Part shown: in pieces, positions 34,479-53,598 of the stretch
How positions within the stretch are numbered: position 1 is the stretch's first letter
Layout of the letters: each line of letters opens with the position of its first letter
Notes under the pieces: model-generated
Database searches by the model: none
Told to the model about the DNA's origin: nothing
The model's input: the letters and a program-made list of their open reading frames with translations, nothing else
Made by a program: the position numbers and the translations under genes
From: Streptococcus ovis DSM 16829
GTDB taxonomy: Bacteria; Bacillota; Bacilli; Lactobacillales; Streptococcaceae
Direction: 5' to 3'
Assembly (NCBI RefSeq): GCF_000380125.1
Contig: NZ_KB904574.1
Span: forward strand, 129,163-193,162
Length of the DNA stretch: 64,000 nucleotides

Positions 34479-34486
34479 GAGTAAAA

Positions 34487-35176
34487 ATGAATTCAACAGA
34501 TACGAATACCATTGAGATTGATGTCCTCTATCTCTTGCGAAAACTTTGGAATGCAAAAGTTTTAATTTTATTTAGCGCCCTCTTTTTTGGGATTTTATCG
34601 TTATTGATCAGTGTGTTACTGATAAAACCAACCTATACTTCCTCTACTCGGATTTATGTTGTTAATCAAATGGGAGAAAAAAGCATTACGGCACAAGACT
34701 TGCAAGCAGGTTCCTACTTGGTAAATGACTATAAAGAGATTATTACGTCAAGTGCGGTCATGTCTGATACCATCCAAAAAGAAGGACTTGCAATGTCTGA
34801 GGGGCAACTCTCCTCGATGATTTCGGTATCTATTCCTGCGGACACTCGCATTATCACCATTTCTGTGAACAGTCATGATGCGGAAGAAGCCCAACGATTA
34901 GCAAATGGGGTACGGAAAGTAGCGGCAGAAAAAATCAAAGAAGTGACAAAAGTAGAAGATGTCACAACGATTGAAGAGGCCAAGGTTCCTGAAAAGCCAA
35001 CCTCTCCAAATACAAAGAGAAATGTCCTACTAGGTGTGCTAGCTGGAGGCTTCCTTTCAGTAGCAGGTGTTCTTTTAAAAGAATTGCTAGATGATCATGT
35101 GCGTCGTCCGGAAGATATTGAAGAAGTATTAGGGCTTGTTTTGATTGGTGTCGTACCAAATTCAGAAAAGTTATAA
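34487..35176 (+). CDS. wzd: Capsule chain-length/kinase activator membrane protein (CpsC)
   Basis: This 229-residue Wzz-family protein has membrane segments near 25-50 and 175-195 flanking an extracellular domain. The C-terminal cytoplasmic tail activates the Wze kinase. The motif EKPTSPNTKRN before the second segment is the family's proline-rich signature. It starts eight bases after wzh. Confidence 0.94.
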   Translation: MNSTDTNTIEIDVLYLLRKLWNAKVLILFSALFFGILSLLISVLLIKPTYTSSTRIYVVNQMGEKSITAQDLQAGSYLVNDYKEIITSSAVMSDTIQKEGLAMSEGQLSSMISVSIPADTRIITISVNSHDAEEAQRLANGVRKVAAEKIKEVTKVEDVTTIEEAKVPEKPTSPNTKRNVLLGVLAGGFLSVAGVLLKELLDDHVRRPEDIEEVLGLVLIGVVPNSEKL

Positions 35177-35186
35177 GGAGAGAAAA

Positions 35187-35912
35187 ATGGCACAGTTTGT
35201 ATTAGCAAGAACAAAAGCTCAAATGTTTAAAACGATGGAAGAGTACTATAACTCCATCCGTGTCAATATTCAATTTAGTGGCAGTAGCTTTAAGGTGATT
35301 ACAGTGACTTCTGTACAGCCTAGTGAGGGGAAGTCGACGACTTCTGCTAATTTGGCTCTCTCATTTGCACAGGCAGGATACCGGACTTTGCTGATTGATG
35401 CTGATATCCGGAACTCTGTCATGACAGGGACTTTTAAGGCAGACAATGCCTATCATGGATTGACTAGTTATTTATCAGGTCATGTGGGATTAGCAGATAT
35501 TATCTCTCAAACAAGTGTAGAAAATCTTCATATTGTACCTGCTGGACAGGTTTCACCGAACCCTACGACCTTATTGCAAAACGCTCTTTTTTCATCGATG
35601 ATTGATCAGGTATCAAATATTTATGATTTCGTCATTATTGATACGCCACCGATCGGCTTAGTCGTTGATGCAGCCGTCATTGCACAACGGTCAGATGCTA
35701 GCCTGTTGGTTACAGAATTTGGAGCAGTTAGCCGTAAGTTTGTCAAGAAGGCAGTGGAGCAAATGCAACAGAGTGGTGTACCGTTTTTAGGGGTTATCTT
35801 GAATAAGGTGGATACCAAAAAAGATAACTACGGTAGCTACGGGTCATACGGAGATTATGGAAAACAAAAGGAGCAGGCAGCAAAACATGCCAAGAAAGCT
35901 TCTAAAAAGTAA
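35187..35912 (+). CDS. wze: Autophosphorylating tyrosine kinase (CpsD)
   Basis: This 241-residue BY-kinase has Walker A PSEGKSTT at about 45-52, Walker A' LLIDADIR and Walker B VIIDTPP. Near the C-terminus the tyrosine cluster NYGSYGSYGDYG is the autophosphorylation site. I chose ATG 35187 because AAGGAGAGAAAA precedes it; the longer frame overlaps wzd. Phosphorylation state is set by Wzh. Confidence 0.95.
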   Translation: MAQFVLARTKAQMFKTMEEYYNSIRVNIQFSGSSFKVITVTSVQPSEGKSTTSANLALSFAQAGYRTLLIDADIRNSVMTGTFKADNAYHGLTSYLSGHVGLADIISQTSVENLHIVPAGQVSPNPTTLLQNALFSSMIDQVSNIYDFVIIDTPPIGLVVDAAVIAQRSDASLLVTEFGAVSRKFVKKAVEQMQQSGVPFLGVILNKVDTKKDNYGSYGSYGDYGKQKEQAAKHAKKASKK

Positions 35913-35944
35913 TTGACAGAATTAAGTAAGATATAGGAAAAAAG

Positions 35945-37759
35945 ATGGATATAAATCAACTAACTCGTACAAATAAAAAAATAATATTAATCGCAATTGA
36001 TACTATTTTGCTATTGTTTGCGATGGGACTATCGTTGGCATTTGTCAATTTTTTTGCTAGTGTTTCATATACCAGTTTTTTGATTTCGTATGCTATCGTA
36101 TTAGTGGCTTACTTTGTCATTGCAAGTTATTTTAAGATATTTTCTATTATTAACCGTTATACGGACTATCGTGTATTGTTTGCGCTATTCGTTTCCACTA
36201 CGTTTGCATATGCTGTGTTATTTGGTGCATCGTACTTATTCAATGATTACAGCTATCGTTTTCTTTTCTTAGCATGGTTTTTTACATTTCCGATTCTCAT
36301 GTTGCCACGGATTGTGTGGCGAGTGCTAAGTGAAAAAATCGAGAACAATACTCATTCAAATGGTGAAAAGAAAAAAGTCAAAACACTAGTAATCGGTGCC
36401 GGAGCAGGTGGACGTCTCTTTGTCGATACTGTTTTAAGTGGCAATAGCGATATTGAGATTGTTGGTTTGATTGACTCGGATCCTAATAAATTAGGGACTT
36501 ATATCCACGGTGCTCGAGTGCTTGGAAATCGGGATGGTATTCCATATATTGTCAAAAACTATGATGTAGAGCAAATTACCATTGCTATCCCATCCTTATC
36601 AGGTGAGGAACGTGAAAAGTTAGTTGACCTCTGCCACGAACTCAACATTAAAGTGAATAACATGCCTAGTGTTGAAGATATCGTTGTCGGTAAAATTTCA
36701 AGTAAACAACTGCGAGAAATTGATATTGCTGACTTATTAGGACGTAAAGAAATCGTCCTTGAACAAGGTGAATTACGGACATTTTTTGCGGATAAGACAG
36801 TTTTAGTGACTGGCGCAGGTGGATCGATTGGTTCAGAAATTTGTCGTCAAGTCTCAAAATTTCACCCAAAACGCTTGTTATTATTAGGACATGGGGAAAA
36901 TTCGATTTATCTCATTCATCGTGAATTGGTGGATAAGTATGGTGGAAAGTTTGAAATTGTACCCTTGATTGCGGATATTCAGGATCAAAACCTAATCTTT
37001 GATTTGATGCAACAGTACAAGCCAGATATCGTTTACCATGCTGCTGCTCATAAACATGTCCCTCTAATGGAATACAATCCAAAAGAAGCAGTGAAGAATA
37101 ATATTTTTGGGACAAAAAATGTGGCTGAAGCAGCTAAGGCATCCGGTGTCGCTAAATTTGTCATGGTATCTACAGATAAGGCAGTTAATCCGCCAAATGT
37201 GATGGGGGCAACCAAACGTGTGGCTGAAATGATTGTGACAGGTCTTAATGAAGCTGGGAAAACACAATTTGTGGCAGTGCGTTTTGGGAATGTACTGGGG
37301 AGCCGTGGTAGTGTGGTACCTGTCTTTAAAGAGCAGATTGCCAAAGGTGGTCCTCTTACTGTTACTGATTTCCGCATGACGCGTTACTTTATGACCATTC
37401 CAGAAGCGAGTCGATTAGTGATTCAAGCGGGTTATATGGCGCATGGTGGTGAAGTGTTTGTCCTTGATATGGGACAACCAGTAAAAATCGTAGATTTAGC
37501 GAAAAAAGTCATTAAATTGAGCGGTCACACTGTTGCGGAGATTGGAATTGTGGAATCAGGTATTCGCCCGGGAGAAAAACTCTATGAAGAATTGTTGTCT
37601 TCTGATGAGCGTGTGAGCGAACAAATTCATGAGAAGATTTTTGTGGGTAAGGTTACACCAAAACCAATTGACGAAGTAGAGTGTTTTATTGATAATCTAT
37701 TGCAACTAGACAATGTGACGCTAAAAGAACGTTTGATTGAATTTGCAAAACAGGAGTAG
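35945..37759 (+). CDS. Membrane UDP-HexNAc 4,6-dehydratase (CapD/PglF type)
   Basis: This 604-residue protein has four membrane segments (about 12-130), a Rossmann fold of unclear role (GAGAGGRLF, about 150) and a C-terminal SDR dehydratase domain. That domain has TGAGGSIGSE near 290-300 and the catalytic MVSTDKAVNPPNVMGATKR region; the family's usual tyrosine is replaced by Met, as in CapD/FlaA1-type dehydratases. It converts UDP-GlcNAc to a 4-keto-6-deoxy sugar. With the aminotransferase and initial transferase that follow, it points to a 4-amino-4,6-dideoxy-HexNAc as the first sugar. Confidence 0.9.
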   Translation: MDINQLTRTNKKIILIAIDTILLLFAMGLSLAFVNFFASVSYTSFLISYAIVLVAYFVIASYFKIFSIINRYTDYRVLFALFVSTTFAYAVLFGASYLFNDYSYRFLFLAWFFTFPILMLPRIVWRVLSEKIENNTHSNGEKKKVKTLVIGAGAGGRLFVDTVLSGNSDIEIVGLIDSDPNKLGTYIHGARVLGNRDGIPYIVKNYDVEQITIAIPSLSGEEREKLVDLCHELNIKVNNMPSVEDIVVGKISSKQLREIDIADLLGRKEIVLEQGELRTFFADKTVLVTGAGGSIGSEICRQVSKFHPKRLLLLGHGENSIYLIHRELVDKYGGKFEIVPLIADIQDQNLIFDLMQQYKPDIVYHAAAHKHVPLMEYNPKEAVKNNIFGTKNVAEAAKASGVAKFVMVSTDKAVNPPNVMGATKRVAEMIVTGLNEAGKTQFVAVRFGNVLGSRGSVVPVFKEQIAKGGPLTVTDFRMTRYFMTIPEASRLVIQAGYMAHGGEVFVLDMGQPVKIVDLAKKVIKLSGHTVAEIGIVESGIRPGEKLYEELLSSDERVSEQIHEKIFVGKVTPKPIDEVECFIDNLLQLDNVTLKERLIEFAKQE

Positions 37760-37763
37760 AATT

Positions 37764-38444
37764 GTGCTAGAAAAAGAATTTCTTGATGTTTTTGAAGTTC
37801 ACGAAGCTCGAAGACAGTTAAAAAAGAAACGCGTATCATTATTTTTAAAACTTCTATTTGATAAGCTAATGTCAGTTTTATTATTAGTTTTTCTCTCGCC
37901 TATTTTTTTGATTTTAGCTATATTTATTAAGTTAGAAGATGGGGGCCCCATTTTTTATCGGCAGGAACGCGTAACAACTAATGGACGATTGTTTAAAATC
38001 TTTAAATTTCGTACTATGGTCATGAATGCTGATAAAATTGGAAGTTTAGTAACGAAGCAAAATGACTCGCGGATTACGAAGATTGGGGCAAAAATTAGAG
38101 ATTATCGGTTAGATGAGATTCCTCAATTGATTAATATCTTGCTCGGTGATATGAGTTTTGTAGGAACACGGCCAGAAGTTGTGAAGTATGTATTATCGTA
38201 CACAGATGAAATGAAAACAACTCTGTTGTTACCAGCGGGAGTTACTTCACTTTCTAGTATACAATTTAAGGATGAAGATACTATTATTGAAGAATTTATG
38301 AAGCAGGGAGAGACCGTTGATGATATTTATATACACCGTATTCTCCCGAAAAAAATGATTCCAAATATCAAATATATCAACTCTTTTAATTTTTTTTCAG
38401 ATATTAAAATTATGTTGATGACAGTGATTAGTGTTATAAGATGA
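37764..38444 (+). CDS. Initial sugar-phosphate transferase (polyprenyl-P primer enzyme)
   Basis: This 226-residue PglC/WbaP-like protein has one re-entrant or membrane segment (about 30-55), then the family motifs GGPIFYRQERV, FKFRTM, RLDEIPQLINIL and DMSFVGTRPEV. It links the first sugar phosphate to undecaprenyl phosphate. I chose GTG 37764 (AGGAG seven bases upstream); the longer TTG frame overlaps the previous gene. The compact C-terminal-only form resembles PglC, which uses diNAc-bacillosamine-type sugars. Confidence 0.9.
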   Translation: MLEKEFLDVFEVHEARRQLKKKRVSLFLKLLFDKLMSVLLLVFLSPIFLILAIFIKLEDGGPIFYRQERVTTNGRLFKIFKFRTMVMNADKIGSLVTKQNDSRITKIGAKIRDYRLDEIPQLINILLGDMSFVGTRPEVVKYVLSYTDEMKTTLLLPAGVTSLSSIQFKDEDTIIEEFMKQGETVDDIYIHRILPKKMIPNIKYINSFNFFSDIKIMLMTVISVIR

Positions 38445-38453
38445 GGACAAGAA

Positions 38454-39671
38454 ATGACAAAGAAAATGAATATTCCTTTCTCTCCACCAGATATTTCTGA
38501 AGAAGAAATAGCGGAAGTAGCAGATGCATTACGTTCAGGATGGATTACAACAGGTCCAAAAACCAAAAAATTAGAAACGTTACTTTCAGAATATGTTGGG
38601 ACTTCTAAAACGGTCTGTCTTAACTCAGCTACTGCTGCCTTAGAGCTGGCTTTGCGTGTGTTAGGAGTTGGTGCAGGTGATGAAGTGATTGTCCCAGCGA
38701 TGACCTATACAGCCTCTTGTAGTGTTATCGAGCATGTTGGTGCGACTCCAGTTATTGTCGATATTCAAGAGAATAGTCATGAAATGGATTATGATTTGGT
38801 AGAGAAAGCAATTACTGAACGTACAAAGGTCATTATTCCTGTCGAACTAGCAGGGATTCCATGTAATCATGAAAAAATCCAAAAAGTGATTAATAGTAAA
38901 AAAGAGTTGTTTAGACCAAGCAATTCTATTCAAGAGCTTTATGGTAGAATCATTGTTCTTTCTGACGCAGCTCATGCTTTTGGTGCAAGTTACAAAGGTA
39001 AAATGATTGGAAATGTTGCTGACTTTACGGCCTTTTCATTCCATGCTGTTAAGAATTTTACGACAGCAGAAGGAGGAGCTATTACTTGGAAAAATCACGA
39101 TGGAGTTGATAATGACGAAATCTATCGTCAATTCCAAGTGTTTTCACTGCATGGTCAAACCAAAGATGCGCTTGCAAAGACACAACTTGGTGCTTGGGAG
39201 TATGATATTGTTATTCCGGGTTTTAAGTGCAATATGACTGACATTATGGCATCAATTGGTTTAGCACAGTATAAACGATACCCTGAGTTATTAAAACGTC
39301 GTTGTGAGATTGTCGAAGCGTATAATAAAGGTTTTGAGGGGACAAATATTCATCCATTACAACACGTTAGCGATAATTATGTTTCATCTTATCACCTTTA
39401 TATCACACATATTGATGGTATTACGAAAGAACGGCGTAATGAGTTGATTACAAAAATGGCAGAAGCAGGGATTGCTTGCAATGTGCATTATAAACCACTT
39501 CCATTATTGACAGCTTATGTAAAAATGGGCTTTAAAATGGAGGATTACCCAAATGCACAGAGCTATTTTGAAAACACCATTACGTTGCCATTACATACGA
39601 AGTTGACAGATGAAGAAGTTGAATATGTAATTGAGACATTAAAACAAATAATTGGAGAGATTCATGAGTAG
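38454..39671 (+). CDS. DegT/DnrJ/EryC1/StrS sugar aminotransferase
   Basis: This 405-residue PLP enzyme begins IPFSPPDISEEEIAEV, typical of PglE/PseC-type UDP-4-keto-sugar aminotransferases. The PLP-binding lysine is in FSFHAVKNFTTAEGG, near residue 198, and DAAHAFGA lies before it. It should add a 4-amino group to the product of the dehydratase. The usual next enzyme, an N-acetyltransferase of PglD type, was not found, so the amino group may remain free. Confidence 0.9.
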   Translation: MTKKMNIPFSPPDISEEEIAEVADALRSGWITTGPKTKKLETLLSEYVGTSKTVCLNSATAALELALRVLGVGAGDEVIVPAMTYTASCSVIEHVGATPVIVDIQENSHEMDYDLVEKAITERTKVIIPVELAGIPCNHEKIQKVINSKKELFRPSNSIQELYGRIIVLSDAAHAFGASYKGKMIGNVADFTAFSFHAVKNFTTAEGGAITWKNHDGVDNDEIYRQFQVFSLHGQTKDALAKTQLGAWEYDIVIPGFKCNMTDIMASIGLAQYKRYPELLKRRCEIVEAYNKGFEGTNIHPLQHVSDNYVSSYHLYITHIDGITKERRNELITKMAEAGIACNVHYKPLPLLTAYVKMGFKMEDYPNAQSYFENTITLPLHTKLTDEEVEYVIETLKQIIGEIHE

Positions 39672-40506
39672 TGTACCTTACGGTATCAGTGTATTATTTT
39701 CAGTATATAAAAATGAGAAGCCATTGTTTTTGAAACAAGCAGTTGAGAGCATGGTTTATCAGACTAGAGTGCCAGACGAGATTGTCATCGTTGAAGATGG
39801 TCCCTTGACGGACGAACTTTATAGTGAATTAAATGATTTACAAGGTCGTTTTCCAGATTTGATTCAACGTTATCCCCTCGCAGAAAATCAAGGGTTAGGG
39901 TTAGCTTTGAAATTTGGTGTTGAAAAATGTCGTTTTAGTCTGATTGCACGCATGGATACGGATGACATTTCTGTTGAAAATCGTTTGGCATTGCAAGAAA
40001 AAGCATTTGAAGAAGATGGGATATTAGATATTGTTGGTGGACATATCAGTGAATTTATGACAGTTCCAAACAGTCCAACTGCTCACCGACGTGTTCCTCT
40101 TACACATGAGGAGATTGCAAAGTATCAGAAAAAACGCAGTGCCTTTAATCATGTTACAGTGATGTTCAAAAAAGATGCTGTTCTAAAAGCGGGCAACTAT
40201 GAACATGGTCTATACATGGAAGATGACTTGCTTTGGCTTAATATGTTGTCTGCGGGTGCTAACACAAAAAATTTAGACCTCGTTTTATGTCATGTACGAG
40301 TGGGAGACGGTATGTATGAAAGACGTGGAGGTTTTTCATATTTACAACAATATTCGGGAGCACGAAAATTGATGTACAAACGGCATCAGATTGGTTTTAT
40401 GGATTATGCTTCCAGCGTGATTGTCCAATCTTTAGTTGCGATTGTGCCGACAGGTGTCCGTAAATTTATCTTTACCAAGCTATTAAGAGAGAAAATTAGT
40501 GAATAA
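39664..40506 (+). CDS. Family 2 glycosyltransferase
   Basis: This 280-residue GT-A enzyme has ISVLFSVYKNEKP at the start, the nucleotide-binding IVEDGP, and the DxD-type metal motif MDTDD (about 100). Later EDDLLW carries the likely base. I chose ATG 39664 (TTGGAGAG upstream; 8-base overlap with the aminotransferase gene). Donor and acceptor cannot be read from sequence; it probably adds the second or third residue of the repeat unit. Confidence 0.88.
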   Translation: MSSVPYGISVLFSVYKNEKPLFLKQAVESMVYQTRVPDEIVIVEDGPLTDELYSELNDLQGRFPDLIQRYPLAENQGLGLALKFGVEKCRFSLIARMDTDDISVENRLALQEKAFEEDGILDIVGGHISEFMTVPNSPTAHRRVPLTHEEIAKYQKKRSAFNHVTVMFKKDAVLKAGNYEHGLYMEDDLLWLNMLSAGANTKNLDLVLCHVRVGDGMYERRGGFSYLQQYSGARKLMYKRHQIGFMDYASSVIVQSLVAIVPTGVRKFIFTKLLREKISE

Positions 40507-40518
40507 CAGGAGCGATAG

Positions 40519-41610
40519 GTGATAAAAATTCTTCATGTTGGATTGAGTTCTAATCCAGGTGGTGTTGAAAATCTGATGCTGAATTACTTCCGCAATATGG
40601 ATAAAACACAATTTACATTTGATTTTGCGGATATTTATGGAGATGGTCTTGCTTTTGCAGAGGATATTCAAACTCTAGGGGGACAAGTTATCACCTTGCC
40701 TAATTATAAGCAGAAAACTGTTTTGTTTATTCAGGAATTTAATCGTTTTTTAGAAAATCATCACTATGATATCATCCATATCCATATGCAGTCAGCCGCC
40801 AATATTCTGCCGGTATTAGTGGCTAAAAAACAATGTGCAAATGTCATTTGCCATTCGCATTCAAGTTCAACGCCGAACGGCTTGCTACGAAAAGTTCTCA
40901 ATGCGACCAATACAACGATATTGCGTAACCTGCGAGTTCATAAGTGGGCTTGTGGGATTAAGGCTGGAGAATGGATGTGGGGAGGGCATTTTGATAAAGA
41001 CTATGTTCTTCCAAATGCAGTTGATATGCGAAAATTTGCATTTGATTCAGTTCTGCGAAACCAAAGTAGAGAGCAGTTGAAACTCCAACCAGAGGATAAA
41101 GTTCTTGGTTTTATCGGTCGATTTGGTGATGAGAAAAATGTGTTTTTCCTCATCGATGTGCTAGAGAAGTTGTTACAAAAATCAGCTCAATATAAGCTGG
41201 TCACGGTTGGAGAGGGAGAATTGCTTCAATCCTTTGTAGAAGAGGTGTCGAAAAAAGGTTTAGAAGATTCGGTTCATTGTCTTGGAAAAAGAAGTGATAC
41301 AGCTGTTTGGTATCAAGCCTTTGACGCTTTCGTACTCCCAAGTTTTTTTGAAGGTTTTCCAGTGGTAGCGGTCGAAGCACAAACGAGCCATCTACCAGTC
41401 TTTTTGTCAGCGAATATTTCAAAAGAAGTGGCGATTTCTGACCAAGTCTCCTTTCTCCCGCTGGATTCTGCTGAAAAATGGGCGGATAAGATTGAGTATG
41501 TTTTAGATGATTATCAGAGAGCGAGACGACAAATAATAGATGAACGGTTTGATATTAGAAATGCGACAAATTTACTTGAGGAAAAATATTGTCAATTGGT
41601 GGATAGATAG
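40519..41610 (+). CDS. Family 1/4 (GT-B) glycosyltransferase
   Basis: This 363-residue enzyme starts ILHVGLSSNPGGVENLM, the acceptor-loop motif of GT4 enzymes. The C-terminal half has GFIGRFGDEKN and PSFFEGFPVVAVEAQ with the E-x7-E-like donor site. The start is GTG 40519 behind ACAGGAGCG. It resembles EpsF/CapH-type transferases of Firmicute capsules; sugar specificity is unknown. Confidence 0.88.
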   Translation: MIKILHVGLSSNPGGVENLMLNYFRNMDKTQFTFDFADIYGDGLAFAEDIQTLGGQVITLPNYKQKTVLFIQEFNRFLENHHYDIIHIHMQSAANILPVLVAKKQCANVICHSHSSSTPNGLLRKVLNATNTTILRNLRVHKWACGIKAGEWMWGGHFDKDYVLPNAVDMRKFAFDSVLRNQSREQLKLQPEDKVLGFIGRFGDEKNVFFLIDVLEKLLQKSAQYKLVTVGEGELLQSFVEEVSKKGLEDSVHCLGKRSDTAVWYQAFDAFVLPSFFEGFPVVAVEAQTSHLPVFLSANISKEVAISDQVSFLPLDSAEKWADKIEYVLDDYQRARRQIIDERFDIRNATNLLEEKYCQLVDR

Positions 41611-41613
41611 ATT

Positions 41614-42915
41614 ATGAGTTTTAATAAAAATAAATTTGGTTTAGTGTTCTTTTTGTTAGTTGCCTTTATTGAATTTCCTCTACGATTAAAAGGAATGGGG
41701 ATCATATCTTCCTTATTCTTATATGCATTACCGATTACGTATATTTTTTTTAATTTGGGATGGGTTGTACAGGTTTTTACTGAATTAAAGAAATCAGTAT
41801 TTTTCCTTGTTTTAATTGGATATATGTATTTACTTGGTATATCATTATTGCTTCCGATACTGTTTGGAACCTTTGATTTTTCATTTCTAACAATTTATTG
41901 GTTTGGTTTCTCTGCTTTTTTCCTAAAAAATCTATTTTTGATTATTGCGTTTGATAAATATTTTGCGACAAACAATGGAAGTAAAGTAGAACAATTCATT
42001 AATTATTTTTTAAATGCTCTAACGCTATATATCAGTTTTAGTTTAGTCTTAATTTTGATTCCTTCTTTAAGGAGTTTGTTGCTAAATATTCTTGAAATTG
42101 ATTCAAAATTTGCAAATTATTTGACGTTGCCTACTTTTTTGACTCGTTTTGGTTGGTCAGGCTGGTCAGGTTTTGATTTTACGATTTGGAGTACGCTCGG
42201 TGTATTGTTCTGTATTGTTCTATCTGTTTTTTATAAGAATAATCGAAAAAAACAAGTACGTTATTTAATGAGAATTCCAATTTATATCATGGGGAATATG
42301 TTTTATGGCCGAACAGGACTTGTAGTGTCTGCTATTTCTTTGGTCGTATTAGTTTTTATATTAGCAGTTAATTTAAAATTTGGCTATCTTATAAAAGTAA
42401 TGCTTTTAGGTGCATCTGGGATAATATTACTTGTATTCGTAAAGTCACATATCTCTTTTTTGAATGAATGGTATAATTGGATGTTTTCTGCTTTCATTAA
42501 TTTTTATCAAAAGGGGCGTTTTGTAGATAATGTTGGATCTGTTTCAAGGTTAAAGGAGATGTACTGGATACCTGAAATCTCTACTTTACTTTTTGGAGAC
42601 TTTAAATACACTGATTTAGGACATTATTATATGAGTACTGATATTGGTTTTATGCGACATCTCTTGTTCTATGGAATTATAAATTATTTTTTAGAAGTAC
42701 TATTTGCAGTTTCAGTTGGTTTTAAATTTGTTAGAATCTTTTTTAAGAAATTTAATTTAGATAGATTTTTACTCAGCATTTTGATGGTATTAGTGATTGT
42801 GATGTTTGAAATGAAGGGTGAAACTTTATTTTACATCATTTCAATTATTTTACCAATTGTAATGTTAGCGGTGAAGGAGCGTAAAATTGATCACAGTAAT
42901 CATGTCCATTTATAA
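41614..42915 (+). CDS. wzy: Capsule repeat-unit polymerase
   Basis: This 433-residue membrane protein has about 11-12 hydrophobic segments and a large extracytoplasmic loop near 280-340. It has no enzymatic motif except the layout of Wzy polymerases. Composition is very AT-rich. It polymerises lipid-linked repeat units at the outer face. The call rests on topology and on being one of only two multi-span proteins of this size in the locus, the other being the Wzx-type flippase. Confidence 0.82.
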   Translation: MSFNKNKFGLVFFLLVAFIEFPLRLKGMGIISSLFLYALPITYIFFNLGWVVQVFTELKKSVFFLVLIGYMYLLGISLLLPILFGTFDFSFLTIYWFGFSAFFLKNLFLIIAFDKYFATNNGSKVEQFINYFLNALTLYISFSLVLILIPSLRSLLLNILEIDSKFANYLTLPTFLTRFGWSGWSGFDFTIWSTLGVLFCIVLSVFYKNNRKKQVRYLMRIPIYIMGNMFYGRTGLVVSAISLVVLVFILAVNLKFGYLIKVMLLGASGIILLVFVKSHISFLNEWYNWMFSAFINFYQKGRFVDNVGSVSRLKEMYWIPEISTLLFGDFKYTDLGHYYMSTDIGFMRHLLFYGIINYFLEVLFAVSVGFKFVRIFFKKFNLDRFLLSILMVLVIVMFEMKGETLFYIISIILPIVMLAVKERKIDHSNHVHL

Positions 42916-43816
42916 TGAAAAATTATTATGGATTCAACAGTCAATTGATTCAATCTTAAATCAAACATATACCAATCTTGAGTTGATTATTATTGTAGAT
43001 AATCCCGAAATCGATAGCTCCATTTTGGAGTACTTGACAACATTATCGTCTCAATATTCTAATGTAAGGATTGAGAAAAATACAGTAAATATTGGCTTGG
43101 CTTCTTCTATGAATAAGGCGATTGAACTTGCAAAAGGGGAATATATAGCAAGAATGGATGCGGATGACATATCGTTATCTAGTCGAATCGAAGAAGAGTT
43201 GAAACACTTGGAAGAAAATGAATATGATTTGGTCTTTTCTGATAAAATAAATATGAGTGAAGATGGTGCTGTTTTTTTTGAAGAAAAGATATCAGACAGA
43301 GATATTCAGAAGAGTTTGTATTCTGGGAGTAATATTGTTAATCATCCTACAGTATTAGTGAAAAGAAGTGTTCTAATTGCCTTGAAAGGGTATCGTAATT
43401 TTCCAAATTCTGAAGATTATGATTTGTGGTTAAGGATGCTTGAAAGTGGCTATAAAATAGGTCATATTAGAAAAGTATTGTTGAAATATCGATTAAGAAG
43501 TACTAGTGCTTCAATTGGTAGAGCATTGGAGCAATATTATATTAGCGAATATATTGTTTCATTATCTGAAAAAAGGCGTCAACAGAATGGTAAAGATCAA
43601 TATTCAATGGACGAATTGCAAAGATTTCTCAACAAAAAGAAAATAACACCTAGAAGACAAAAGAATTTTTTAATTGCCTCCCAGTATTTATCTCAATCTT
43701 TATCGGCTATTCAAGAGTATTCTTTCTTAAAAGCTATATCTAGTTTATTGATTTCCTTTATTTATTTTCCAAGTTTACCCTTTAAAGCTATGTTGAGAAG
43801 GTTAAACTTTAGGTAA
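42887..43816 (+). CDS. Family 2 glycosyltransferase
   Basis: This 309-residue GT-A enzyme begins ITVIMSIYNEKLLW, has LIIIVDNPE and the metal motif MDADD (about 90), with SEDYDLWLRML as catalytic region. The start is TTG 42887 behind GAAGGAGCG, overlapping wzy by 29 bases. A hydrophobic C-terminal stretch may associate it with the membrane. It resembles rhamnosyl- or galactosyl-transferases but I cannot assign the sugar. Confidence 0.85.
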   Translation: MITVIMSIYNEKLLWIQQSIDSILNQTYTNLELIIIVDNPEIDSSILEYLTTLSSQYSNVRIEKNTVNIGLASSMNKAIELAKGEYIARMDADDISLSSRIEEELKHLEENEYDLVFSDKINMSEDGAVFFEEKISDRDIQKSLYSGSNIVNHPTVLVKRSVLIALKGYRNFPNSEDYDLWLRMLESGYKIGHIRKVLLKYRLRSTSASIGRALEQYYISEYIVSLSEKRRQQNGKDQYSMDELQRFLNKKKITPRRQKNFLIASQYLSQSLSAIQEYSFLKAISSLLISFIYFPSLPFKAMLRRLNFR

Positions 43817-43828
43817 TGAGGAGTAAGA

Positions 43829-44878
43829 ATGAAAAAAAGAAATTCTGGAATAGATATATTAAAAATAATCGCAATGTTTATGATACTGTTTATTCATTTA
43901 CTTGGAGAAGGTGGAATTATTTCTACCCTCCAACATATTGGGGGGAGCAAATATTATGTTGTTTCGGCAATTGTTGTTGCGTTTTATTGTCATGTTAATT
44001 GCTATGGTTTAATCAGTGGATATTTAGGAGTACAGAAGCAATCAAATTATTTAAAAATTTTCTTGTTATGGTCTCAAGTGATTTTTTATAGCTTAGGTGG
44101 GACGTTATTGTTATTTTTGATAGGCTATACTGATATTACGACAGAAATATGGAAAAAAACGTTATTTCCTATATCTAGTGGCACATATTGGTATATGACG
44201 GCTTATTTTGGAATGTTAATTTTTATCCCTCTTATGAATCCAATTTTAAAAAAAATGACAGCAACTCAGTTGATGAGAGTCTGTTTAGTTTCTTTTTTTC
44301 TTTTTTCATTCTTTCCAACAATATTATCAGATAGTAATAAGTTTTTAGGAGTAAATCAGGGGCTAAGCACAATTTGGTTGATAAATTTATATTTGATTGG
44401 AGCATTATTGTATAAAATAGATTTACATAAGATTAAAAATGTTATTCTTTGTGTCATCTATTTCAGTTCAATTTTTGTAACAGTGCTAATGAAGCAAGTT
44501 TTTAAGGCTGATTATTGGCTAATGTATAGTTCTCCTACAATTTTATTGAGCGCAATATCTGTTTTTATCTTATTTAGTCGTATCCAAATTCCATCAAATA
44601 CGACGAAAAAGGTATTAGCAGTGATTAGTTCTTTAACTTTAGGGGTGTACTTATTGCATTTTCAACCGATGGCTTATGAACTTTTTTTAAAGAATAAATT
44701 GACATATCTAGTAGAGTATCCATTTGTGTATTTTATCATTAGTTTATTAGGAATTTCTATTCTTGTGTTTAGTATGAGTCTATTGATTGACTATTTAAGG
44801 CTAAAATTTTTTGAAAGAATACAGGTAAGAAGATTTTGGGAGCGTTTATTAAAGCGTACCTTTGATGTGGAGGAATGA
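43829..44878 (+). CDS. Membrane acyltransferase (OafA/WecH-like, Acyl_transf_3)
   Basis: This 349-residue protein has about ten membrane segments. It begins KRNSGIDILKIIAMFMILFIHLLG, where the R/H pattern of the first helix is the family's hallmark. Such enzymes transfer acetyl or other acyl groups from CoA to surface glycans. It lies 13 bases after a glycosyltransferase gene and overlaps licD by four bases, so it probably decorates the capsule repeat. Confidence 0.85.
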   Translation: MKKRNSGIDILKIIAMFMILFIHLLGEGGIISTLQHIGGSKYYVVSAIVVAFYCHVNCYGLISGYLGVQKQSNYLKIFLLWSQVIFYSLGGTLLLFLIGYTDITTEIWKKTLFPISSGTYWYMTAYFGMLIFIPLMNPILKKMTATQLMRVCLVSFFLFSFFPTILSDSNKFLGVNQGLSTIWLINLYLIGALLYKIDLHKIKNVILCVIYFSSIFVTVLMKQVFKADYWLMYSSPTILLSAISVFILFSRIQIPSNTTKKVLAVISSLTLGVYLLHFQPMAYELFLKNKLTYLVEYPFVYFIISLLGISILVFSMSLLIDYLRLKFFERIQVRRFWERLLKRTFDVEE

Positions 44879-45597
44879 AAGTGAATTTTACAGACACGAA
44901 ATATTGGAAAAAATTTCAAAAAAACAAATTATTATTTCCGCTCTATAAAAAATATATAGGGAAGCATATTACGAATTATTTCTTGACAGATAGACGAAAT
45001 GAGATACAACATACCGGCATCGAAACTATTCAGGAGATAGAGGAAGCATTATCCAGCAAAGGAGCCACATTCTTTTTGGGGAATGGTTCACTATTGGGTA
45101 TAGTTCGAGATGGAGAAATGATTAAATGGGATCATGATATTGATTACGGTATCTATATTGATGAACAATTCGGCTGGGAAACATTAGAATCTAGCCTTCG
45201 TAATTTAGGCTTTTCAAAGTATAAAGAGTTTTACTTTGAAAATGAGTTACTAACAGAACAGACTTATCGTCGAAATAATACTTATGTTGATTTCTTTAGG
45301 CATTTTGAAACTGAAGATGAAACTTATTTCTATTCATATTATAAAATTATGGGAGAAGAATATGCTTCTGAGAATGAGCAAAGTGTGAGAACCTTTAATA
45401 CTGTAAAATTAAGTGGTTCTCAAGTGATGTTGATTGATGGAAAGCAATTCCATGTCCCTAACGAATACGAAGAGTACTTGGCTGGATTGTATACTTCAAC
45501 TTGGAGGGTACCTAATCCTAACTGGGTTGCAGGTTCTGGTCCAGCTTGTCGTGTCTTGTCAGGGAAAAAAGGTTTTTGTAAAATTTTAGAGCCCTAA
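44875..45597 (+). CDS. licD: LicD-family phosphotransferase
   Basis: This 240-residue protein has the LicD core: FFLGNGSLLGIVRDGEMIKWDHDIDYG, with Asp86, Asp88 and Asp90 as the metal-binding acids. LicD enzymes transfer phosphocholine or other phospho-groups from CDP-activated donors onto glycans. No choline uptake/kinase genes (licA, licB) are present. The CDP donor is therefore probably made by the two nucleotidyltransferase-like genes downstream. ATGA overlap with the acyltransferase gene indicates coupling. Confidence 0.85.
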   Translation: MKVNFTDTKYWKKFQKNKLLFPLYKKYIGKHITNYFLTDRRNEIQHTGIETIQEIEEALSSKGATFFLGNGSLLGIVRDGEMIKWDHDIDYGIYIDEQFGWETLESSLRNLGFSKYKEFYFENELLTEQTYRRNNTYVDFFRHFETEDETYFYSYYKIMGEEYASENEQSVRTFNTVKLSGSQVMLIDGKQFHVPNEYEEYLAGLYTSTWRVPNPNWVAGSGPACRVLSGKKGFCKILEP

Positions 45598-45617
45598 TTA
45601 ATATTGGAGATTATAAA

Positions 45618-46730
45618 ATGAATATAGCTATTATCGGTGCTGGTAATTTGGGAACAGCAATCGCCGCTGATTTAGGAAGAAATCACGAAGTCAAAATATA
45701 TAGTTCAAGGCCAGAAAGTTTTGGAAAGAGTTTGCAATATATTGATGAAGTAACTAAGGTAATACATTTTGGAAATGTTGCTCTTGTATCGAATGATTAC
45801 AAGGAAGTTGTATTTGATGCTGAACTTATCTTTATTTGCTTACCGACTTTTTTAATTAAAGAAACCGTAGAGAAACTTATTCCTTTTTTACAAAAGGATG
45901 TAAAGGTAGGGTTCGTTCCAGGTGCAGGGGGAATTGAGTATCTTTCGAAAGAATTGGTGGATCGAAAAGTTCCTATTTTTGGTTTTGAGCGAGTTCCTTA
46001 TATTTCTAGAGTAAGAGATTATGGAAAAAGTGTTTGCGCTTCAAAAAAACAACATTATCGTATAGCTACCATTCCTAGTGCTGAGGCTATTTCATTAGCA
46101 GGAGTTATTTCGGAATTATTCGAGGTTCCGTGTGATGCGATGAGCCAATTTATATCCATATCACTGACTCCTACTTTGCATACTTCTAGGTTATACGATT
46201 TATACAAGGATTACAAAGAGGGAGACTTGCTAGATGTAAATCCATATTTTTATGGAGAATGGAGAGACTCTGCCTCTGAAATTTGTTTAGAACTTGATTC
46301 AGAGTTACACAAAGTGGCAAGTAGTTTAGAACAAAAAGGAATTCCTACTAGCGAACTTGTTCCCTATTCTATTCATTATGAGAGCGAAACACCAGAATTA
46401 TTGACACACAAACTATGTTCGATTTCTTCCCTTTCTAGTATAAAGGGACCTCTTATTGAAACAACGAAAGGAAAGTATGTGGTTGATTTAAATTCGAGAT
46501 ATTTTACAGAAAGTTTTCCATATAGATTGGCACTTGTAAAAGGTTTAGCTGATATATGTCAGATTAGTATTCCAAAAACAGATGAAGTTCTTACTTGGTA
46601 TTCTCAGTTAGCAGGAAAAGAATATTATATGGACGGGGAGTTTACGGGAGTGGACAGCTATGAATGCAATATCCCTCGAAATTATGGCATCCAGACATTA
46701 ACTGATTTAAGAGATTTTTATCAAGCTTGA
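45618..46730 (+). CDS. NAD(P)-dependent opine/octopine dehydrogenase-like protein
   Basis: This 370-residue protein has an N-terminal Rossmann fold, IAIIGAGNLGTAIAADLG, and a helical C-terminal domain of the octopine/opine dehydrogenase type with a conserved-looking His (about 193, PTLHTSRL). Family members reduce the imine formed between a 2-oxo acid and an amino acid, or a ketone in polyol synthesis. It is not a normal capsule gene. It may make an N-(1-carboxyalkyl) amino acid, or a polyol phosphate, used as a substituent. The exact substrate is not inferable. Confidence 0.7.
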   Translation: MNIAIIGAGNLGTAIAADLGRNHEVKIYSSRPESFGKSLQYIDEVTKVIHFGNVALVSNDYKEVVFDAELIFICLPTFLIKETVEKLIPFLQKDVKVGFVPGAGGIEYLSKELVDRKVPIFGFERVPYISRVRDYGKSVCASKKQHYRIATIPSAEAISLAGVISELFEVPCDAMSQFISISLTPTLHTSRLYDLYKDYKEGDLLDVNPYFYGEWRDSASEICLELDSELHKVASSLEQKGIPTSELVPYSIHYESETPELLTHKLCSISSLSSIKGPLIETTKGKYVVDLNSRYFTESFPYRLALVKGLADICQISIPKTDEVLTWYSQLAGKEYYMDGEFTGVDSYECNIPRNYGIQTLTDLRDFYQA

Positions 46731-46752
46731 TAGGTATTTTAAGGATTATTAA

Positions 46753-47355
46753 ATGAGCGAATATATATTTTTATTTGATTTAGATTCGACTGTTACAAAA
46801 AAAGAAATTTTACCAACAGTTTCAGAAAAGATTGGTAAGTTGAGTGAGATGAGAAGATTGACAGAGGCTACAATGCAAGGAGAGCTACCTTTTAAGACAA
46901 GCTTTTTGCAAAGAGTGGATATTCTTAAAGATATTGATGTCAATGATGTTCGAGATATTGTGAAAGATATTCCGTTGAATCATGCAATTGCCAATTTTAT
47001 TATGAGTAATAAGGACAGATGTTATATTGTTACTGGTAATTTGGATGTATGGATTGACACACTAATGGAAAAATTATCTATGAAGGAGCATTTATATTGT
47101 TCAAAAGCAAATGTCAAGGAAAACAAAATTGATCATGTCGTTAGCGTTGCTGATAAAGAATTAATCGCTCGGCAATTTGTACATCCACTCGTTGTAATTG
47201 GTGATGGTGATAATGATTCCGGAATGGCAAGGTTGGCAGATATTGCGATTGGTTTTGGTGGAGTTAGAGAAATTGCTCCATCGTTACTTAGAAATATTGA
47301 TTATGCATTTTACGATGATATAGCTTGTGCAAATTTTTTAGAAAGTTTGTTGTAG
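46753..47355 (+). CDS. HAD-family phosphatase (phosphoserine phosphatase-like)
   Basis: This 200-residue enzyme begins YIFLFDLDSTVTK, with Asp9 and Asp11 as nucleophile and acid. IVTGNLDVW and GDGDNDSGMA supply the other HAD motifs. The layout resembles SerB-like phosphatases or the phospho-intermediate phosphatases of CDP-activated pathways. Between the dehydrogenase and the nucleotidyltransferase, it could dephosphorylate an intermediate of the substituent pathway. Confidence 0.8.
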   Translation: MSEYIFLFDLDSTVTKKEILPTVSEKIGKLSEMRRLTEATMQGELPFKTSFLQRVDILKDIDVNDVRDIVKDIPLNHAIANFIMSNKDRCYIVTGNLDVWIDTLMEKLSMKEHLYCSKANVKENKIDHVVSVADKELIARQFVHPLVVIGDGDNDSGMARLADIAIGFGGVREIAPSLLRNIDYAFYDDIACANFLESLL

Positions 47356-47368
47356 TAAATGAGGTTTA

Positions 47369-48019
47369 ATGATGAATAAGAACGATACAACCATTGTAAT
47401 ATGTTGTGCAGGTATGGGAACACGTTTAGGCATTGGTACTCCAAAAACGTTAGTGAATATCTGTGGAAAGCCTCTTATTATCCATCTTTTAGAGATGTTA
47501 TCAGATTATGATGATATTCGGATAGTAGTAGGCTTTCAGGCTGAAAAAGTAATCAATGTTGTAAAAGAATTTAGAAAAGATATCACTTTTGCATTTAATT
47601 ATGATTATAAAACAACAGGTGTTGCTGCTAGTCTATCTAAAGCAATTCTAGGAGCTAGAAAATATGTGGTTTCTATTGATGGTGATTTATTAATTAATCC
47701 AAATGATTTCCAAGGATTTTTAGAAGCACCATATGAATGTATTGCAGGTAGTGACCCAACTTCAGAAGAAACTATTTATATGTCGACAAGTTCTGATGCA
47801 ACAAGAATTGTAGAATTTTCAAAAAATAAAACTGAGACAGAGTGGATTGGACTGGTAAAAATTGAAACTTTTAAACTTCATCAATATAAGGATAGTGTAA
47901 TCGAGATGATGAAAGAACATCTTCCGCTACCTTTAATAAGAGTACGGTCGCGTGAAATAGATACTCCTGATGATTATGAAAAGATGGTAAATTGGTTTGC
48001 GAACGGTTGCCAAGATTAA
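47369..48019 (+). CDS. Nucleotidyltransferase (LicC/IspD-like sugar-nucleotide type)
   Basis: This 216-residue enzyme begins VICCAGMGTRLGIGTPKTLVNICGKPLI, the pyrophosphorylase signature with Lys for phosphate contact, and carries SIDGDLLI as metal-binding motif. The short single-domain form fits CTP:phosphocholine cytidylyltransferase (LicC) or related enzymes that activate phospho-alcohols or phospho-amino-acids. It may supply the donor for LicD. Confidence 0.82.
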   Translation: MMNKNDTTIVICCAGMGTRLGIGTPKTLVNICGKPLIIHLLEMLSDYDDIRIVVGFQAEKVINVVKEFRKDITFAFNYDYKTTGVAASLSKAILGARKYVVSIDGDLLINPNDFQGFLEAPYECIAGSDPTSEETIYMSTSSDATRIVEFSKNKTETEWIGLVKIETFKLHQYKDSVIEMMKEHLPLPLIRVRSREIDTPDDYEKMVNWFANGCQD

Positions 48020-48037
48020 TTGAATGGAGAGGAATTT

Positions 48038-48742
48038 ATGAAAAAAAAGATGACAATTGGTGTTCTTGGAGGAATGGGGACTTTTGCTACAATCCATTTT
48101 TTCCAACAGTATGCCAGTGTGTTTAAGGCGGAAAAGGAATGGGAAAGACCTAGAATAATAATTGATAATCGGTGTACTATGCCTAGTAGAGTGAGAGCTT
48201 TTTTATATGATGAAAATACTGATCAACTTGTTGACGAAATGGTAGATTCAATTAAAAGTTTAGTGAATGCGGGTGCTGATAAAATTATTTTAGCTTGCAA
48301 TACGTCTCATATTTTTATTCCAAAAATTGAAGAAAAATTTCCTCAAGCGAAGGGGATGATTATAAATATTATCGAAAACTGTTCCCAAAAAATTTTAGAA
48401 GATAGTATTGATGAAGTCTATTTGCTAGGTTCCGAAGGTACGATTGAATCGGGGGTATATCAAACGATTCTTGAAGAAAGTGGCATACGTTGTCTCGTTC
48501 CCGAAGAAGAGCAATATAAAATATTAAGAGATTGTATTGAGGCAGTGAAACAACATTCTTATAGTGAAGATATAGAAAGTAAGTTTCTTTCATTAATCAA
48601 TGCAAATTCTATCTGTATTTTAGGGTGTACAGAATTACCTATTTTGTATGAAAGATATTTTGATAAGATTAGTTGTGAGAAAGTATACGATCCATTATTA
48701 CTAGTATTAGATAAGTTGAAAGAAGAATTTATAAATGAATAA
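48038..48742 (+). CDS. Aspartate/glutamate racemase family protein
   Basis: This 234-residue protein has IGVLGGMGTFAT at the start, then Cys87 in ACNTSH and Cys197 in LGCTELP, the two cysteines that act as acid and base in this family. I chose ATG 48038 because GGAGAGGAATTT precedes it. The fold also includes non-racemase lyases. It lies in a capsule operon beside an opine-dehydrogenase-like gene, so a D-amino acid or derivative could be built into the polysaccharide. It overlaps the next gene by eight bases. Confidence 0.82.
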   Translation: MKKKMTIGVLGGMGTFATIHFFQQYASVFKAEKEWERPRIIIDNRCTMPSRVRAFLYDENTDQLVDEMVDSIKSLVNAGADKIILACNTSHIFIPKIEEKFPQAKGMIINIIENCSQKILEDSIDEVYLLGSEGTIESGVYQTILEESGIRCLVPEEEQYKILRDCIEAVKQHSYSEDIESKFLSLINANSICILGCTELPILYERYFDKISCEKVYDPLLLVLDKLKEEFINE

Positions 48743-49148
48743 AATATTAACATTTGGAGTATATGATTTTCTACATTTAGGTCATTTACGTTTATTTAAA
48801 CAGTGCCATTTACATGGAGATTATCTGATTGTTGCTGTACAAGATAGTGATTTCATTTTAAAATATAAGCCTGAGGCTAAGATTTTATACAATACAAGTG
48901 AAAGAGTAGAGATGTTAGAAGCTATCAAATGTGTTGATGAAGTTTTAATTTATCAAACTGTTTCAATTGATTTTTTATCAATCATAGATTTTGATATTTT
49001 AGCACTGGGTGAAGATCATGTTGCTGAACGTTTTTGCAAGATAGAGAAGTGGTGTATAGAACACGGAAAGAAGGTTGTTCGCTTGAAGAGAACAGACGGA
49101 ATTTCTTCTTCAAGTATTAAAGAATTTTTGAACGATTCAAAGAATTAA
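48735..49148 (+). CDS. TagD-like cytidylyltransferase
   Basis: This 137-residue protein has GVYDFLHLGHLRLF, with the HxGH signature, and RTDGISSSSIKE, the second CTP-binding motif. The family (glycerol-3-phosphate or related cytidylyltransferases) makes CDP-alcohols. In a capsule locus with LicD it probably makes the CDP donor for a phospho-alcohol substituent or backbone link. Two candidate cytidylyltransferases in one locus suggest two activation steps or two substituents. Confidence 0.85.
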   Translation: MNKILTFGVYDFLHLGHLRLFKQCHLHGDYLIVAVQDSDFILKYKPEAKILYNTSERVEMLEAIKCVDEVLIYQTVSIDFLSIIDFDILALGEDHVAERFCKIEKWCIEHGKKVVRLKRTDGISSSSIKEFLNDSKN

Positions 49149-49156
49149 TATAAAAT

Positions 49157-51067: not shown

Positions 51068-51096
51068 TTGACAACCTTCTTTTTTCAAGTTATAAT
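51068..51096 (+). promoter_or_regulatory. Promoter of pyrK-pyrDB
   Basis: A perfect TTGACA (51068-51073) and a perfect TATAAT (51091-51096) are spaced by 17 bases. It starts the transcript that contains the first PyrR attenuator. Confidence 0.93.
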
Positions 51097-51120
51097 GAGT
51101 GAAAATTAGACCTTTAATGT

Positions 51121-51222: not shown

Positions 51223-51267
51223 CTATCGTTTGTGTCCTTCGGTTTGTAGAAAGTGAGGAGAGAGAAA

Positions 51268-53572: not shown

Positions 53573-53598
53573 GAAGATAATCAAATAACCTTTAATCA

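What the first reader, a model, noticed from the sequence alone, without database searches (positions are those of the whole stretch)
44875..49148. Unusual capsule cassette: LicD, opine-dehydrogenase-like, HAD, two nucleotidyltransferases and an Asp/Glu racemase
Six consecutive genes have the pieces for making, dephosphorylating, activating (CDP) and transferring a phospho-substituent, but no choline, glycerol or ribitol synthesis genes. The opine-dehydrogenase-like enzyme and the two-cysteine racemase suggest an amino-acid-derived or opine-type group, new to streptococcal capsules as far as I know.
Basis: partly seen in the sequence, partly recalled or inferred. Interest (0 to 1): 0.75.

Follow-up and report, generated by a model that had tools for sequence, protein, structure and literature searches.

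The report
Capsule cassette for phospho-amino-acid decoration
A streptococcal capsule gene cluster carries a rare set of genes that most likely attaches an activated, chemically altered amino acid to the capsule through a phosphate link, a chemistry so far described on the flagella of two unrelated bacteria.

Summary
The six genes exist at 44875-49148 as described: divergent LicD, opine-dehydrogenase-like ODH, HAD, LicC-like nucleotidyltransferase, two-cysteine racemase, TagD-like cytidylyltransferase, between acyltransferase and Wzx genes of a capsule locus. The interpretation can be sharpened. HAD and LicC-like are homologues of an adjacent pair in the P. aeruginosa b-type flagellin island (32%, 28% identity). 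That pair and its C. difficile counterpart are genetically required to attach phospho-N-methylated threonine, by a proposed CDP-threonine (PMC10714395, PMC11833859). Four of four HADs examined from this group have TGN where seven of seven SerBs have SGG. ODH and LicC-like occur in 2 of 284 Streptococcus genomes, with the same gene order. One other genome's polysaccharide locus has LicD-HAD-LicC-like-racemase-TagD in that order without ODH. So the core probably makes a CDP-activated phospho-amino acid for LicD; ODH probably N-carboxyalkylates it where flagellar systems N-methylate. Substrates and reactions are inferred, the TagD step is unexplained, and ODH has Ser at the dyad Asp. My searches of open-licence papers found no capsule precedent.

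The parts
44875..45597 (+). Divergent LicD-type phosphotransferase (240 aa), presumed to transfer X-phosphate from CDP-X to the repeat unit
   Evidence: PF04991 26.3 bits over 32 residues; NCBIfam Mf1 47 bits against a cut-off of 225; hhalign 94% to LicDs of L010/L015 over 52 columns; motif LGNGSLLGIVRDGEMIKWDHDID
45618..46730 (+). ODH: octopine/opine-dehydrogenase-like NAD(P) enzyme (370 aa); streptococcal add-on, presumed N-carboxyalkylation
   Evidence: PF02317 62 bits; octopine dehydrogenase 3c7a E=8e-20; H188=OcDH H212 and R294=R324 kept, D329 replaced by S299
46753..47355 (+). HAD of the CD0241/PA1089 group (200 aa), presumed phosphotransferase making the phospho-amino acid
   Evidence: 32% over 170 aa to the HAD of the P. 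aeruginosa flagellin island; motif II TGN not SGG; SerB model 79 bits, below its cut-off of 144, while the genome's separate SerB scores 254
47369..48019 (+). LicC-like NTP transferase of the CD0242/PA1090 group (216 aa), presumed CTP:phospho-amino-acid cytidylyltransferase
   Evidence: 28% over 212 aa, 93 bits, to the NTP transferase of the P. aeruginosa flagellin island; PF12804; AGMGTRLGIGTPK and IDGD motifs
48038..48742 (+). Two-cysteine Asp/Glu racemase family enzyme (ORF opens at TTG 48020), presumed racemase of an acidic-side-chain amino acid such as O-phosphoserine/-threonine or Asp
   Evidence: PF01177 69 bits; asp_race 129 bits, over cut-off; CuyB 140 bits, below its cut-off of 190; 1jfl C82, C194, R48, K164 all conserved
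48735..49148 (+). TagD-like HxGH cytidylyltransferase (137 aa); role unresolved
   Evidence: PF01467 61 bits; glycerol-3-phosphate cytidylyltransferase 1coz E=5.5e-16; conserved with the core in L058 at 65%
43829..44878 (+). Acyltransferase 3 family membrane protein, neighbour
   Evidence: PF01757 64 bits
49157..50611 (+). Wzx-type flippase, last gene of the capsule locus
   Evidence: PF01943/MatE
33747..43816 (+). Rest of the capsule locus: CpsB/C/D-like, PseB-like 4,6-dehydratase with FlaA1 layout (35945), sugar transferase (37737), DegT/PseC-like aminotransferase (38454), GT2 (39652), GT4 (40519), Wzy-like protein without Pfam match (41614), GT2 (42887)
   Evidence: PseB and PseC models are matched below their equivalog cut-offs; CpsB/C/D, FlaA1 and Wzy names are recalled from sequence and order, not from a profile hit

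Best explanation
The cassette is a phospho-amino-acid decoration module of a Wzx/Wzy capsule. Core (LicD, HAD, LicC-like, racemase, TagD-like): the HAD puts a phosphate on a hydroxy-amino acid (threonine or serine; donor perhaps phosphoserine), the LicC-like enzyme joins it to CMP giving a CDP-amino acid, the racemase sets the configuration of the alpha carbon (D form) of an acidic, probably phosphorylated, amino acid, and LicD passes the phospho-amino acid from CDP to a sugar of the repeat unit. Streptococcal add-on: the opine-dehydrogenase-like enzyme condenses the amino group with a 2-keto acid (for example pyruvate) and reduces it, giving an N-carboxyalkyl (opine) amino acid, in the place where the flagellar systems use a SAM N-methyltransferase. 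Shown here: gene content, homology, conserved order, one locus with the core but no ODH. Inferred: every substrate, the order of steps, the D configuration, and the ODH reaction. The TagD-like step is not explained.
For: HAD and LicC-like are homologues of the adjacent HAD and NTP-transferase genes of a P. aeruginosa island ahead of a gene annotated B-type flagellin; I equate these with PA1089 and PA1090 by their place and annotation, not by comparison with PAO1 itself. In PAO1 and in C. difficile 630 the pair is required to add phospho-N,N-dimethyl- or N-methyl-threonine (PMC11833859, abstract and discussion read; PMC10714395, abstract and sections 6 and 7 read; PMC4441256, passages). HAD motif II is TGN in 4 of 4 cassette/flagellin HADs and SGG in 7 of 7 SerBs compared; the genome has a separate SerB scoring 254 bits on the SerB model where the cassette HAD scores 79, below cut-off. 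The same six-gene order in a second Streptococcus. The racemase keeps both cysteines and R48 and K164 of aspartate racemase 1jfl (the roles of these residues are recalled), fitting an acidic side chain such as phosphate. ODH-like genes also sit with CDP-transfer and amine-making genes in L010 (TagD fusion, LicD, PhnW/BhcA-like aminotransferase) and in Mogibacterium timidum (NTP transferase fused to a CobD/HisC-like enzyme, LicD).
Against: Identity to the flagellin pair is low (28-32%) and the Pseudomonas HAD sits on a very long branch (4.5 changes per column), so same-substrate inference is weak. CDP-threonine is a proposal of those papers, not an isolated metabolite; PMC11833859 reports that earlier work saw a mixture with wild-type glycan in a pa1089 mutant. 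The phosphotransferase idea rests on likeness to ThrH, yet the NCBIfam ThrH model was not among the matches of the window HAD (E up to 0.1), of L038's HAD (E up to 1e-5) or of L058's HAD (E up to 1e-8), although it matched both streptococcal SerBs below its cut-off; the confidence below was lowered a little for this. Two nucleotidyltransferases but only one LicD: TagD-like is unexplained and could mean a glycerol-type donor. The ODH dyad Asp is Ser299 in both streptococci, whereas the six other homologues that I aligned keep Asp. LicD is a weak, partial Pfam match. The core-without-ODH case is a single locus on a 15.7-kb contig. No substrate was tested.
Confidence: 0.52

Rival explanations
1. 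The TagD-like enzyme makes CDP-glycerol (or a close polyol) and LicD adds ordinary glycerol phosphate; HAD, LicC-like, racemase and ODH make a second, separate amino-acid group.
For: TagD-like is closest in PDB to glycerol-3-phosphate cytidylyltransferases; only one LicD for two nucleotidyltransferases; glycerol-3-phosphate is a common metabolite.
Against: The four enzymes HAD, LicC-like, racemase and TagD-like travel together in two different kinds of locus with one recognised LicD each, suggesting one product; TagD-like scores 66 bits against an equivalog cut-off of 165 and has GEDH where L010's TagD domain has GSDW.
Confidence: 0.2
2. Racemase and ODH make a free opine (such as N-carboxyethyl-D-Asp/Glu/Ala) that is amide-linked to the 4-amino sugar made by the PseB/PseC-like genes, as alanopine is in Providencia alcalifaciens O35; the phosphate genes serve something else.
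For: 4-amino-sugar type genes are present at 35945 and 38454; alanopine and N-carboxyethyl-lysine are reported O-antigen parts (PMC10609480, passages and a reference title); characterised metagenomic opine dehydrogenases prefer L-Asp and L-cysteate with pyruvate (PMC10787698, passages).
Against: No amide ligase was recognised among the 15 proteins scanned; the racemase is kept in L058, where no ODH was found on the contig, so the racemase goes with HAD and the nucleotidyltransferases rather than with ODH.
Confidence: 0.12
3. An ordinary phosphocholine or phosphoethanolamine system: LicC-like cytidylyltransferase plus LicD.
For: LicD and LicC-like families; LicC 1jyk is among the PDB matches (30 bits); NCBIfam cholinephosphotransferase Mf1 is the only NCBIfam match of LicD, 47 bits against a cut-off of 225.
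Against: No choline kinase or transporter hit in the 15 proteins scanned; a choline-type locus met here (L059) has a choline-kinase fusion and a BCCT transporter; the LicC-like protein scores 93 bits (BLASTP) with the flagellin enzyme and 30 bits (phmmer, another program) with LicC.
Confidence: 0.05
4. The ODH-like protein is not an opine synthase but a dehydrogenase for a keto or hydroxy acid (its N-terminus resembles GpsA/PanE), supplying the group that is phosphorylated.
For: Dyad Asp replaced by Ser in both streptococci; GpsA/PanE-type N-terminal matches.
Against: C-terminal PF02317 domain matched nearly end to end (3-149 of 150) and the His and Arg positions kept.
Confidence: 0.15

Closest known systems
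C. difficile Type A and P. aeruginosa b-type flagellin glycan pathways (cd0240-cd0244; pa1088-pa1091)
   Same: Adjacent SerB-like HAD and LicC-like NTP transferase, a CDP-dependent phosphotransferase, and an enzyme that may modify the amino acid's nitrogen (methyltransferase there, ODH here)
   Different: Capsule rather than flagellin; LicD instead of the TagF-type transferase; ODH instead of a SAM methyltransferase; extra racemase and TagD-like enzymes
LicC/LicD phosphocholine systems
   Same: LicD transferase and LicC-fold cytidylyltransferase
   Different: No kinase or choline uptake gene recognised; HAD, racemase, ODH and second nucleotidyltransferase added
Opine dehydrogenases (octopine dehydrogenase 3c7a, PF02317)
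   Same: PF02317 domain, GxGxxG, His and Arg at the octopine dehydrogenase 212 and 324 positions
   Different: Dyad Asp is Ser in the streptococcal pair; found in a capsule locus
O-antigens with N-carboxyethyl amino acids (alanopine in Providencia alcalifaciens O35)
   Same: An opine in a surface polysaccharide
   Different: There a derivative of a 4-amino sugar (amide link recalled); here proposed as a phosphodiester
Class V aminotransferase + TagD/Gfo-Idh fusion + LicD loci (L010; Ruminococcus albus plasmid pRUMAL01, L070)
   Same: Amine-bearing CDP donor presumed, LicD, polysaccharide locus; L010 also has an ODH
   Different: No HAD, LicC-like or racemase match in L010; none annotated in the stretch of L070 shown

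Membership tests
Type A / b-type phospho-threonine pathway | CD0241/PA1089-type HAD next to CD0242/PA1090-type NTP transferase | tested here: met
   32% and 28% identity to the pair in a P. aeruginosa B-type flagellin island, same order; PAO1 and C. difficile sequences themselves were not compared
Type A / b-type phospho-threonine pathway | SAM-dependent N-methyltransferase in the cluster | tested here: not met
   No methyltransferase profile hit among 15 proteins of 35945-50611
Type A / b-type phospho-threonine pathway | TagF-type (PF04464) phosphotransferase | tested here: not met
   No PF04464 hit in those 15 proteins; LicD instead
Type A / b-type phospho-threonine pathway | Flagellin glycan as acceptor, phosphodiester-linked N-methylated threonine as product | not testable with these tools
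   Capsule locus here; product needs NMR or MS
ThrH-type phosphotransferase | Match to NCBIfam ThrH model NF010109 | tested here: not met
   Not among the window HAD's nine NCBIfam matches at E up to 0.1
LicC/LicD phosphocholine system | Choline kinase and choline transporter with LicC | tested here: not met
   None among 15 proteins of 35945-50611
LicD family | PF04991 over cut-off, with the motif seen in L010/L015 LicDs (such as GALRHKGFIPWDDDID) | tested here: met
   26.3 bits against 22.6, but only 32 residues; motif present in altered form GNGSLLGIVRDGEMIKWDHDID
Opine dehydrogenase family | PF02317 domain and GxGxxG | tested here: met
   62 bits, GAGNLG
Opine dehydrogenase family | Catalytic His-Asp dyad (PMC10787698, passages; residue numbers recalled) | tested here: not met
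   His kept (H188), Asp is Ser299; Glu298 adjacent
Asp/Glu racemase family | Two catalytic cysteines | tested here: met
   1jfl C82 and C194 conserved
Glycerol-3-phosphate cytidylyltransferase (TagD) | TIGR01518 over equivalog cut-off | tested here: not met
   66 bits against 165.4

The most novel reading that the evidence does not exclude
A capsule is decorated with a phosphodiester-linked opine: an N-(1-carboxyalkyl) D-amino acid (serine or threonine type) made through a CDP-opine donor. This would be a new class of capsule substituent and a new nucleotide-activated metabolite, with the CDP-amino-acid route acting as a portable module whose N-modifier (methyltransferase or opine dehydrogenase) is exchangeable.
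Probability: 0.33. Interest if true: 0.82.

Novelty: new variant of a known kind. Interest (0 to 1): 0.62.

Why it matters
It would carry the CDP-amino-acid chemistry, described in the papers that I found only for two flagellin glycans, into capsules, give a testable assignment for a six-gene cassette, and predict a strongly charged (carboxylate plus phosphate) capsule epitope relevant to serotyping and to reading capsule structure from sequence. The flagellin papers treat CDP-threonine as a prediction; these compact, apparently soluble enzymes are a second system in which it can be tested.

Tried and rejected
Plain phosphocholine (no kinase or transporter recognised). HAD as the housekeeping SerB: rejected, a separate SerB lies elsewhere in the genome and motif II differs. 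HAD as an ordinary phosphatase: disfavoured, not excluded. ODH relatives L011, L012 and L013 lie beside transporter or mutase-like genes and L014 looks like GpsA (read by eye, no profiles). Of 8 plasmid records with an ODH match I looked at 3 (Paraburkholderia, Burkholderia stagnalis, Cytobacillus); no polysaccharide gene is annotated in those stretches. The Priestia record has no annotation. Viral contig scans with ODH, LicC-like and racemase alignments confirmed nothing, nor did phages with the LicC-like protein. The plasmid search with the racemase gave 106 records, 20 listed, annotated as racemases or unannotated, none followed. That with TagD-like gave 52 records, 12 listed, one followed. 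The host species was not identified. One search found its files missing and was repeated.
Full report
What is there. The six genes are at the stated coordinates, in one direction and nearly without gaps, inside a capsule locus that runs from the CpsB-like gene (33747) to a Wzx-type flippase (50611) and is followed by a PyrR site and pyrK/pyrD-like genes (CpsB, PyrK and PyrD names are recalled from the protein sequences). Pfam supports all six families above curated cut-offs, LicD only weakly and over 32 residues. A profile comparison of this LicD with three ordinary LicDs gives 94% probability over 52 columns around the catalytic motif. G+C is 31-35% in the 2-kb windows over 44-50 kb, against 40-46% in those from 51 kb on and 37-42% in those of 25-34 kb; low values also occur elsewhere upstream, as at 22-25 kb.

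How rare it is. The ODH (E up to 1e-10) and the LicC-like protein (E up to 1e-15) each have matches in 2 of 284 Streptococcus genomes, the window's own and G283. Among 345 genomes sampled in the order, the HAD profile found only the own genome (1 of 345, E up to 1e-25; G283 presumably was not in that sample). Among 398 sampled from the phylum, the ODH matched in 6, own included, and the LicC-like profile in 2, own included. Within the family of G619 the ODH profile matched 1 of 90, G619 itself; within the family of Mogibacterium 3 of 89, strongly only in Mogibacterium.

Conserved order. G283 (L009) has the acyltransferase, LicD, ODH, HAD, LicC-like, racemase, TagD-like and Wzx genes in the same order at 57-85% identity; the polymerase candidate at 41614 had no match there, all other locus genes from CpsB to Wzx had one. 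Purifying selection is evident (dN/dS 0.05-0.22, with dS above 1). Its contig (L058, 15.7 kb) holds a full LicD (164 bits), HAD 68%, LicC-like 57.5%, racemase 63% and TagD-like 65% in the same order, with no ODH match on the contig. Its neighbours are nucleotide-sugar, GT and Wzx genes. ODH-profile matches elsewhere in that genome are weak (best 42.5 bits, in a 377-aa frame on another contig, not examined). So the core appears to be LicD, HAD, LicC-like, racemase and TagD-like, with the ODH as an addition.

Link to a known chemistry. On plasmids the LicC-like protein has two matches; the better lies in a P. aeruginosa island ahead of a B-type flagellin gene, the other, on a Priestia plasmid, is weak. 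The gene next to it is the HAD's best plasmid match (109 bits; of 33 records, 30 listed, the others listed reach at most 70 bits and are mostly SerB or unannotated). Pairwise identities are 28% over 212 aa and 32% over 170 aa. In PAO1 and in C. difficile 630 such genes are needed to attach N,N-dimethyl- or N-methyl-threonine to a sugar by a phosphodiester; the authors propose a phosphoserine:threonine phosphotransferase (HAD), CDP-threonine (NTP transferase) and a TagF-like transferase (PMC10714395, abstract and sections 6 and 7 read; PMC11833859, abstract and discussion read; PMC4441256, passages). [quoted passage not shown] The HAD group differs from SerB by TGN instead of SGG at motif II, 4 of 4 against 7 of 7, and by a 100/99 split in a tree of 11 rows, though the Pseudomonas row has a very long branch. 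The genome carries a separate SerB, 254 bits on the SerB model; the cassette HAD has 79 and L058's 85, both under the cut-off of 144. Against the phosphotransferase idea, the ThrH model is not among the HAD's matches.

The racemase. The two cysteines of the P. horikoshii aspartate racemase 1jfl are conserved, and so are R48 and K164 (the source organism and the roles of all four residues, R48 and K164 as binders of the distal carboxylate, are recalled). The best NCBIfam models are cysteate racemase (below cut-off) and asp_race (over it). An acidic side chain is therefore likely; in this operon O-phosphoserine or O-phosphothreonine would fit, as would aspartate.

The ODH. It matches octopine dehydrogenase 3c7a (E 8e-20). 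The His (OcDH 212) and Arg 324 are kept; Asp 329 is Ser in both streptococcal proteins, with Glu beside it, whereas the six other homologues that I aligned keep Asp (further ODH-like loci in hand were not aligned). PMC10787698 (passages) describes a His-Asp dyad as conserved among opine dehydrogenases, so this is a real departure. Elsewhere ODHs nearest to this one lie with LicD and amine-making or CDP-making genes: L010 (class V aminotransferase, SbnB-like protein, TagD fused to a Gfo/Idh domain, two LicDs) and Mogibacterium timidum (NTP transferase fused to a CobD/HisC-like enzyme, LicD, two ODHs). This is in line with action on an amine that ends up phosphate-linked.

What stays open. There are two nucleotidyltransferases and one recognised LicD in both kinds of locus. 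The TagD-like enzyme belongs to the core (65% in L058) but no step of the proposed route needs it; it may make a second donor, such as a glycerol type, or act on the other diastereomer. The keto acid, the amino acid, its configuration and the acceptor sugar are unknown. The 4-amino sugar suggested by the PseB-like and PseC-like genes is a possible acceptor.

Literature. Searches that joined opine dehydrogenase with capsule or LicD returned no paper. Of 9 papers with at least three of capsular polysaccharide, racemase, octopine dehydrogenase and cytidylyltransferase, none held octopine dehydrogenase. A search for at least five of Streptococcus, capsular polysaccharide, LicD, racemase, HAD family and nucleotidyltransferase returned none. 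Of 96 papers with two of CDP-threonine, phosphothreonine and capsul-, 20 were listed and only PMC10714395 among them held CDP-threonine. Of three papers with a CDP-threonine or CDP-serine term, two are the flagellin papers and the third, on steroids, was seen only in the listing. Only open-licence papers were searchable. The confidence of the best explanation was lowered from 0.55 to 0.52 on re-checking, for the missing ThrH match.

Noticed in passing
window 45618-46730, residue 299 of the ODH: The Asp of the opine-dehydrogenase His-Asp dyad is Ser in both streptococcal ODHs and Asp in the six other homologues aligned.
   Followed up: partly
L010 4383-10853 (G619) and L070 6040-11810 (Ruminococcus albus pRUMAL01): A different LicD module: class V aminotransferase plus a TagD-type cytidylyltransferase fused to a Gfo/Idh domain, perhaps making an amino-polyol CDP donor; in G619 joined by an ODH and an SbnB-like protein.
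   Followed up: partly
L015 2806-11062 (Mogibacterium timidum): LicD, an NTP transferase fused to a threonine-phosphate-decarboxylase/HisC-like enzyme, and two ODH copies in one polysaccharide region.
   Followed up: partly
window 41614-42915 and L009 8731-9909: The two streptococcal loci share the other genes in order but their polymerase candidates do not match by tblastn, so the polymers may differ in one linkage.
   Followed up: no
window 51107-51225 and 53585-53690: Two PyrR binding sites (Rfam RF00515) next to the pyr-like genes directly after the capsule locus; a 12 of 12 consensus promoter lies at 51068-51096.
   Followed up: no
L045 3538-4242 and 7718-8242 (G542): A distant LicC-like NTP transferase beside a CDP-alcohol-phosphatidyltransferase-like gene and a flagellin end (names recalled), possibly another flagellin phospho-decoration system.
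   Followed up: no
window 14362-18894: An open frame of 1510 aa upstream, not examined.
   Followed up: no
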